The notes beneath the pieces were generated by a model that saw only the letters and a list, made by a program, of their open reading frames with translations, ran no database searches and was not told where the DNA came from. Of a stretch of 64,000 nucleotides of DNA, positions 43,908-45,239 are shown in pieces. How positions within the stretch are numbered: position 1 is the first letter of the stretch; every line of letters starts with the position of its first letter. Source of the DNA: Chloroflexota bacterium (lineage in GTDB: Bacteria > Chloroflexota > Dehalococcoidia > Lucifugimonadales > Australimonadaceae); NCBI GenBank assembly GCA_028874795.1, contig JAPPHT010000030.1:1-64000 (forward strand). The letters are read 5' to 3'. Both the position numbers and the translations under genes were made by a program.

Positions 43908-45239
43908 ATGACAACGACCGACCTCGAACTGGCGCAGGAGTCCGCTCAGCTGGTGAACGTTGAGCAGGGGCTTGTCAGCAGACGCATCTTCTCTGACCCG
44001 GACATCTACGAGCTGGAACTGGAGCAGATCTTCGCCAGATGCTGGCTCTACCTCGGGCACGAGTCCCAACTGCCCAACCCCGGCGACTACATCAACGTCT
44101 TCATGGGCGAGGAGCCCGTCCTCGTCGTCCGCAACCGCCAGGGGAAGCTCAACGCCTTCATCAACAGCTGCCGCCACCGCGGCAACCGCGTCTGCCGGGC
44201 CGACGCCGGCAACACGGCCTCGTTCCTGTGCACCTACCACGGATGGACGTACGACCTGGACGGAAAGCTTATCGGTGTACCGGGGCACAAGGAGCTATAC
44301 CACGGCGAGTTGAACCGCGGGCAGTGGGGCCTGCCCCAGGTTGCCCAGGTGGCCAGCTACAAGGGACTGATCTTCGGGACGTTCGACCCGGACGCGCCGT
44401 CGTTGGATGAGTACCTCGGCGGGATGCGGTGGTGGCTGGACGTTCTCCTGGAGCAGGGCGACATGGTCGCGGTGCCCGGCGTCGTTCGCTGGCAGATGAA
44501 CGTCAACTGGAAGTTCGCAGCGGACAACGCCTACGACAACTATCACGGCATGACCCATATCTCTTCGATCATCGCCGGGCACAAAGGCGCCGCCGGAACG
44601 ACGGGGCGTGAACGTCTGGCCGTCTCCGGCGACCAGACCAGGGGTATCAGCGTCGTAACCGAATACGGCCACGGCTTCAACGCGCCCTACATCGTCGACG
44701 AGACCTTCGACTGGGACGTCCCGACGAACTACTGGCGCAAGGACCCGGAGATACAGAAGCGCCTCGGGCCCGAGCGCGTCCGGCTCGCCCGCGGCAACGG
44801 GAGCGTCTTCCCGAACCTGTTTGTCAACCCCGGCTCTCGTGAACTGATGATCAGGCAACCACTCGGCCCGGGCAGGATGGAGATCTGGAAGACCACCCTG
44901 GTTGACAGGAACGCTCCTCCGGAGGCGAGAAAGATGTTCCGCTATGGATCCAACCGCCACTTCGGGCCGGCGGGCATGTTCGAGCAAGACGACGGCGAGA
45001 ACTGGGACCAGAGCACGTACGGAGCGCGCTCGCCCGTAGCACGCAGGAATGAACTCAACTACACCATGGGCCTTGGGCACGGCCATATCGTGGAGGACGA
45101 GTCGGGTCCTCCGCGGGTTGAGAATGTCCGGAACGAGCATGGCCAACTCTGGCATTACCGTTGCTGGGCGGAGTACATGGCCGCGCCGGACTGGAGACAC
45201 CTCCGAGAGCACCATTCGAAACCCGAAGGCACACTCTAG
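43908..45239 (+). CDS. Rieske ring-hydroxylating dioxygenase alpha subunit (array copy 3)
   Basis: same Rieske motif; 'YDNYHGMTH'; 'FGPAGMFEQDDGENWDQ'. Confidence 0.95.
   Translation: MTTTDLELAQESAQLVNVEQGLVSRRIFSDPDIYELELEQIFARCWLYLGHESQLPNPGDYINVFMGEEPVLVVRNRQGKLNAFINSCRHRGNRVCRADAGNTASFLCTYHGWTYDLDGKLIGVPGHKELYHGELNRGQWGLPQVAQVASYKGLIFGTFDPDAPSLDEYLGGMRWWLDVLLEQGDMVAVPGVVRWQMNVNWKFAADNAYDNYHGMTHISSIIAGHKGAAGTTGRERLAVSGDQTRGISVVTEYGHGFNAPYIVDETFDWDVPTNYWRKDPEIQKRLGPERVRLARGNGSVFPNLFVNPGSRELMIRQPLGPGRMEIWKTTLVDRNAPPEARKMFRYGSNRHFGPAGMFEQDDGENWDQSTYGARSPVARRNELNYTMGLGHGHIVEDESGPPRVENVRNEHGQLWHYRCWAEYMAAPDWRHLREHHSKPEGTL

What the first reader, a model, noticed from the sequence alone, without database searches (positions are those of the whole stretch)
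44040..44402. 363-bp identical tract shared by two inverted Rieske alpha genes
Seen: bases 44040-44402 (copy 3, + strand) equal the reverse complement of 51028-51390 (copy 5, - strand) at every position in my line-by-line comparison, including third codon positions. Differences begin directly outside (e.g. 'gatgctgg' vs 'ggtgctgg' upstream, 'tcgttggatgag' vs 'tcgctggacgag' downstream), and the catalytic domains differ clearly. The tract covers the Rieske domain. Inference: recent gene conversion between inverted copies ~6.6 kb apart, homogenising the electron-transfer domain while the substrate pocket stays divergent.
Basis: partly seen in the sequence, partly recalled or inferred. Interest (0 to 1): 0.85.

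Follow-up and report, generated by a model that had tools for sequence, protein, structure and literature searches.

The report
Shared electron-transfer domain kept identical
In a bacterium with about 80 related ring-oxidising enzymes, the part of each enzyme that receives electrons keeps being copied from one gene to another, so in many of them it stays nearly identical while the substrate-binding parts diverge freely.

Summary
Window 44040-44402 (+) equals the reverse complement of 51028-51390, 363/363 bases, and differs at the first base on either side. All 121 codons match, including every fourfold site, whereas only 54% of aa-identical codons match in the same genes' catalytic domains. 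Gene conversion is supported, but this tract is only the youngest event of a larger process.

Five of the six RHD alpha genes here have homogenised Rieske halves (about codons 22-205). In three orthologues on one contig from another organism, the Rieske domain groups by contig while the catalytic domain groups by orthologue (AU tests). The genome holds 86 Rieske domains. All six shared tracts of 170-363 bp between its paralogues lie in the Rieske part, some on different contigs. A congener held as one contig shows the same pattern. The mechanism is recurrent, domain-limited gene conversion (concerted evolution).

The proposed reason, compatibility with a few shared electron donors, is inferred. 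One gene, a6, has escaped and its Rieske domain is degrading. Gene conversion itself is known; this domain-limited, dispersed form in Rieske oxygenases appears undescribed in the papers searched.

The parts
44040..44402 (+). 363-bp identical tract in a3 (residues 45-165), Rieske domain
   Evidence: Pfam Rieske a3 46-129
51028..51390 (-). 363-bp identical tract in a5 (residues about 43-163), Rieske domain
   Evidence: predicted structure of a5 puts the Rieske beta-strands at 45-156
41182..42513 (+). a1, ring-hydroxylating dioxygenase alpha; Rieske half homogenised with a2-a5
42540..43886 (+). a2, ring-hydroxylating dioxygenase alpha; Rieske half homogenised
43908..45239 (+). a3, ring-hydroxylating dioxygenase alpha (HcaE-like), copy 3 of the finding
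46692..48032 (+). a4, ring-hydroxylating dioxygenase alpha; Rieske half homogenised
50170..51516 (-). a5, ring-hydroxylating dioxygenase alpha (HcaE-like), copy 5 of the finding
51540..52853 (-). a6, ring-hydroxylating dioxygenase alpha that has escaped homogenisation; divergent, loop-deleted Rieske domain
49606..50169 (-). HcaF-like beta subunit, the only beta subunit recognised in the cluster
43948..44530 (+). wider homogenised zone of a3 (91% to a5 over 583 bp), older conversion around the 363-bp core; pairs with 50900-51482 (-)

Best explanation
The 363-bp identity is the footprint of a recent non-reciprocal recombination (gene conversion) between a3 and a5. It belongs to continuing concerted evolution limited to the N-terminal electron-input module (about codons 22-205: Rieske domain and the first strands after it) of the alpha subunits of Rieske oxygenases in this genome. 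SHOWN here: identity at silent sites inside versus near-saturated divergence outside; Rieske modules that group by genome or contig while catalytic modules group by orthologue; several further tracts of the same kind elsewhere in the genome and in a congener. INFERRED: the step is RecA-type homologous recombination that starts in the conserved Rieske stretch and is blocked in the catalytic half by divergence and by selection for different substrates. Also INFERRED, and much less certain (about 0.3-0.4): copies with a common Rieske module are favoured because many oxygenases draw on few electron donors and, in this cluster, one beta subunit.
For: Exact tract and sharp ends; fourfold sites 57/57 identical in codons 60-175 versus about 30% in the catalytic half; codon test 10^-33; permutation test. 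Rieske tree: the a4-, a5- and a6-type proteins of one 76-kb contig (P0007, P0002, P0006) form a clade (98/91), and orthologue clades are rejected (p-AU 1.7e-6, 3.5e-4, 0.006). Catalytic tree: orthologue clades at 86-100, and the contig clade and the a3+a5 clade are rejected (p-AU 2e-66, 7e-32). Genome-wide: 10 of 11 exact runs of at least 80 bp and all six of at least 150 bp centre on the Rieske part. Fourfold identity higher in Rieske than catalytic, against the reverse, at p<0.01: own genome 16:0, single-contig congener G001 14:0, G643 10:1, G018 3:0. Swapped nearest relatives: 8/42, 12/32 and 9/47 genes have the Rieske nearer an own-genome paralogue than the orthologue; the mirror test gives 1/36, 1/21 and 4/42. 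One orthologous pair is homogenised separately in own (97%) and G001 (98%), while across those genomes its Rieske domains are only 87-89% alike.
Against: No reads were available, so collapse of a few differences in the window's own tract by the assembler cannot be excluded. Congener G005 shows only a weak excess (2:1 at p<0.01). Gene pairs are not independent, so the pair counts are not probabilities. Short tracts occur in the catalytic half too (a1/a6, 30 bp; the recent C74 tandem). The functional driver rests on counts of donors only; other reductase families were not searched.
Confidence: 0.9

Rival explanations
1. Assembly artefact: a metagenome assembler collapsed or duplicated one Rieske segment into both genes.
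For: The genome is in 90 contigs; similar segments are where assemblers err; no reads are available.
Against: Collapse needs near-identity beforehand. The other copies at the same place remain 91% and distinct. The pattern recurs in pairs on different contigs and in single-contig G001 (98% Rieske, 69% catalytic). Protein orthologues from other assemblies show the same incongruence.
Confidence: 0.05
2. Purifying selection alone: the Rieske domain evolves slowly, so it looks identical.
For: Rieske amino acids are more conserved than catalytic ones on average in every genome compared.
Against: It does not preserve silent sites: 121/121 codons versus 77-84% in sister pairs and 54% in the catalytic half. 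Nor does it make paralogues closer than orthologues.
Confidence: 0.02
3. Inversion switch: the inverted 363-bp repeats recombine reciprocally to flip the 6.6 kb between them and swap the catalytic halves of a3 and a5.
For: Perfect inverted repeats of this length can recombine (general knowledge); the catalytic halves lie on the inner side of both repeats, so a flip would swap them.
Against: The N-terminus/catalytic pairing of both genes matches relatives (P0008 for a3, P0002 for a5), so there is no sign of a flipped isomer. Many other tracts join genes on different contigs. An occasional flip in the population is not excluded.
Confidence: 0.06
4. Recent duplication or domain insertion: a whole Rieske segment was transposed once into a diverged gene.
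For: A single replacement gives the same footprint as one conversion.
Against: Stepwise identity (100%, then 72-82%, then 60%) and 77-84% codon identity among all five copies point to repeated overlapping exchanges; the gene layout stays intact and in frame.
Confidence: 0.03

Closest known systems
Concerted evolution of KS/AT (PKS) and A/C (NRPS) domains (Medema et al. 2014, PMC4256081)
   Same: Intragenomic recombination homogenises chosen domains of paralogous enzymes; domain trees branch by cluster instead of by orthologue.
   Different: There the domains are modules of a few giant synthases in one cluster; here they are halves of dozens of separate oxygenase genes, some on different contigs.
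Concerted evolution of duplicated bacterial genes such as rRNA operons (PMC8022953, PMC6002687)
   Same: Gene conversion keeps copies more alike within a genome than between genomes.
   Different: There the copies stay alike over the repeated unit and make the same product; here only one domain is homogenised while the other half keeps diverging.
SAR202 expansion of ring-hydroxylating dioxygenase alpha paralogues (PMC6946804)
   Same: Similar family and copy number (up to 62 alpha copies with few beta subunits).
   Different: That paper describes expansion; the words 'concerted' and 'recombination' do not occur in its text.
HcaE/HcaF 3-phenylpropionate dioxygenase (PDB 8k0a)
   Same: Nearest solved relative of a5 (by sequence) and a6 (by fold); same two-domain alpha fold.
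   Different: The a genes score far below the HcaE equivalog cut-off (364 against 830 bits), so the substrate differs or is unknown.

Membership tests
Gene conversion tract between paralogues | Tract of near-identity including silent sites, bounded by diverged flanks | tested here: met
Gene conversion tract between paralogues | Flanking genes and gene layout not exchanged (non-reciprocal) | tested here: inconclusive
   N-terminus/catalytic pairing agrees with relatives; relatives' gene order could not be read
Concerted evolution | Paralogues within a genome closer than orthologues between genomes in the affected segment only | tested here: met
Concerted evolution | Recurs in several copies and lineages | tested here: met
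   weak in G005
Ring-hydroxylating dioxygenase alpha subunit | Rieske domain plus catalytic domain (PF00355, PF00848) | tested here: met
Ring-hydroxylating dioxygenase alpha subunit | CxH...CxxH cluster ligands and D-x2-H-x4-H iron site | tested here: inconclusive
   cluster ligands present in all six; the iron site is H-x4-H in a2, a4, a5, a6 but H-x3-H in a1 and a3
HcaE equivalog | NCBIfam NF042946 score above cut-off | tested here: not met
   364 bits (a5) against cut-off 830

The most novel reading that the evidence does not exclude
The Rieske half is a genome-wide shared electron-input cassette, actively kept uniform across many oxygenases so that all fit the same few donors and even mixed alpha trimers. 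The genome can then evolve new catalytic halves onto a standard plug, and a member that leaves the pool (a6) loses its Rieske function.
Probability: 0.3. Interest if true: 0.8.

Novelty: new variant of a known kind. Interest (0 to 1): 0.66.

Why it matters
It shows, with silent sites and conflicting domain trees, that a large enzyme family can evolve its two halves by opposite rules: one half pooled across the genome, the other half free to diversify. That could explain how bacteria with dozens of Rieske oxygenases and few visible electron donors keep them all powered. It warns that whole-length trees of these genes mix two histories, and that Rieske-based gene surveys will misassign orthologues. 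It also points to natural Rieske modules that are probably interoperable, of use for enzyme engineering.

Tried and rejected
The order and phylum searches found no close orthologues of the cluster in held genomes, so the a1-a6 orthologue test was made on proteins, and DNA-level orthologue tests on other Rieske genes of the same genus. Eremiobacterota relatives (64%) have too few similar paralogues to inform. Purifying selection alone rejected on silent sites. No tRNA in the window. The literature searches found no paper joining gene conversion to Rieske oxygenase paralogues; subscription papers are not covered. Donor direction between a3 and a5 could not be told. The ORF 48037-48693 matched no family.

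Full report
OBSERVATION. The two stretches are identical over exactly 363 bases, with the first mismatch immediately outside on both sides. They lie 6,625 bp apart in inverted orientation. They code for residues 45-165 of a3 and about 43-163 of a5, where Pfam places the Rieske domain and where the predicted a5 model has its Rieske beta-strands (45-156). The identity includes silent sites: 121 of 121 codons, against 77-84% of aa-identical codons in other a1-a5 pairs over the same stretch and 54% in the a3/a5 catalytic halves. With the family's codon usage, full codon identity by chance is about 10^-33. A GENECONV-like permutation gives a run of 88 polymorphic sites against a maximum of 20 in 2,000 shuffles. 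With no differences in 363 bp, the 95% upper bound on divergence is 0.8%, so the event is recent.

THE CLUSTER. Six alpha-subunit genes lie at 41182-42513, 42540-43886, 43908-45239, 46692-48032 (+) and 50170-51516, 51540-52853 (-). There is one recognised beta subunit (49606-50169), plus extradiol dioxygenases of the LigB family, transporters, methionine-synthase-like and amidohydrolase genes. The three alphas scanned (a3, a5, a6) are HcaE-like but far below the HcaE equivalog cut-off. In a1-a5, codons from about 30 to 205 are mostly 80-100% identical in DNA while the catalytic part is about 60-70%. The 363-bp tract is thus the newest layer on an already homogenised zone.

CONCERTED EVOLUTION IN THE CLUSTER'S ORTHOLOGUES. 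Each catalytic half has its own orthologue elsewhere: a1 with P0004 and P0005, a2 with P0012, a3 with P0008, a4 with P0003 and P0007, a5 with P0001 and P0002, a6 with P0006, P0011 and P0013. They are a5-, a6- and a4-type in the catalytic half. In the Rieske half they form one clade (98/91) with 96-98% identity among themselves. AU tests reject orthologue groupings in the Rieske half (p 1.7e-6, 3.5e-4, 0.006). They reject the contig grouping and the a3+a5 grouping in the catalytic half (p 2e-66, 7e-32).

GENOME-WIDE. The genome has 86 Rieske domains. I fetched 81 Rieske-motif ORFs and compared all pairs. Exact shared runs of 363, 343, 292, 260, 236 and 170 bp occur in six different pairs, several across contigs, and every one centres on the Rieske part; 10 of 11 runs of at least 80 bp do. 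Fourfold-site tests: 16 pairs with Rieske more alike than catalytic at p<0.01 and none the other way. G001, a congener held as one 2.5-Mb contig, has 14 and 0; G643 has 10 and 1; G018 has 3 and 0; G005 only 2 and 1. So the process is active but uneven between lineages. By DNA, 8 of 42, 12 of 32 and 9 of 47 genes with a clear catalytic orthologue have a Rieske part closer to a paralogue in their own genome; the mirror test gives 1/36, 1/21 and 4/42 (the mirror test used a looser margin for calling the orthologue). One orthologous pair of old paralogues (catalytic 67-72% alike) has been homogenised separately in the window's genome (97%) and in G001 (98%), while the Rieske parts of the two genomes are only 87-89% alike.

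EXTENT. In affected pairs, raised silent identity runs from about 65 codons before the first cluster cysteine to about 85 after it, then falls to background by about 135. In a5 numbering this ends close to Asp209 and His212 of the iron site; by comparison with naphthalene dioxygenase (own knowledge) Asp209 is the residue that bridges the two metal centres. The pooled unit is therefore the electron-input module.

MECHANISM. Shown: non-uniform silent divergence, domain-wise phylogenetic conflict, recurrence. Inferred: homologous recombination starts in the conserved Rieske stretch; the catalytic half escapes because it is too diverged and because replacing it would lose a substrate specificity. 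Why it persists is inferred too. The genome has about 80 oxygenase-like Rieske genes, 12 beta subunits, one FNR-type reductase by PF00175, none by PF14759, and three small Rieske ferredoxin candidates. Few donors for many acceptors would favour one shared docking surface, as would mixed trimers in a cluster with one beta subunit. Other reductase families were not searched, so this stays a hypothesis, at about 0.3 to 0.4.

THE EXCEPTION. a6 has not been homogenised. Its catalytic half is 96-98% identical to P0011 and P0013, but its Rieske half is only 78-82% identical, with a lost loop and changed motif residues, though the four cluster ligands remain. The model is less confident there than in a5. 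Its counterpart P0006 is normal. This is what a gene that left the pool would look like.

ARTEFACT. No reads are held. Collapse by an assembler cannot explain the incongruence in independent assemblies or the single-contig congener, and it requires near-identity to begin with. I give it 0.05.

TAXON. Saw et al. 2020 (PMC6946804) report SAR202 Chloroflexota with up to 62 alpha copies, and the most similarly expanded genome found by name is a Dehalococcoidia MAG. A placement near SAR202 is an inference from this.

NOVELTY. Gene conversion and concerted evolution are well known, including domain-wise in PKS and NRPS (PMC4256081). I found no report of it in Rieske oxygenases or of one domain pooled across dozens of separate enzyme genes, within an open-access library.

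Noticed in passing
51540-52853 (-): a6 and orthologues P0011, P0013, P0122 have a fast-changing Rieske domain (CPHCGS motif; loop deleted in a6, P0013 and P0122) on a highly conserved catalytic half.
   Followed up: partly
41182-42513 and 43908-45239: a1 and a3 have H-x3-H instead of the usual H-x4-H in the catalytic iron site (YHGITH, YHGMTH); several metagenomic relatives (P0020, P0022, P0023, P0027) share it.
   Followed up: no
P0001 (relative of a5): Carries an a2-type N-terminus before an a5-type catalytic half, so exchange there ran through the 5' end of the gene.
   Followed up: no
whole genome G000: 86 Rieske domains in 3.3 Mb with one PF00175 reductase: an extreme ratio of oxygenases to visible reductases.
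   Followed up: partly
C74:7194-9907, C79:177647/253055, C20:8536/C38:1102, C90:22271/C21:1497, C79:169263/C78:55933: Five further paralogue pairs with identical Rieske tracts of 170-343 bp.
   Followed up: yes
57074-60727 (+) and 60291-62318 (-): An RCC1-repeat/fn3 protein and a large serine recombinase lie beside the dioxygenase cluster. The cluster has no close orthologue in five held congeners, which fits an acquired island.
   Followed up: no
45494-46575 and 54467-55524: Two diverged methionine-synthase-like genes (74-80% identical stretches) flank the a4-a6 genes.
   Followed up: no
48037-48693 (+): 218-aa ORF directly after a4 with no Pfam or NCBIfam match.
   Followed up: partly
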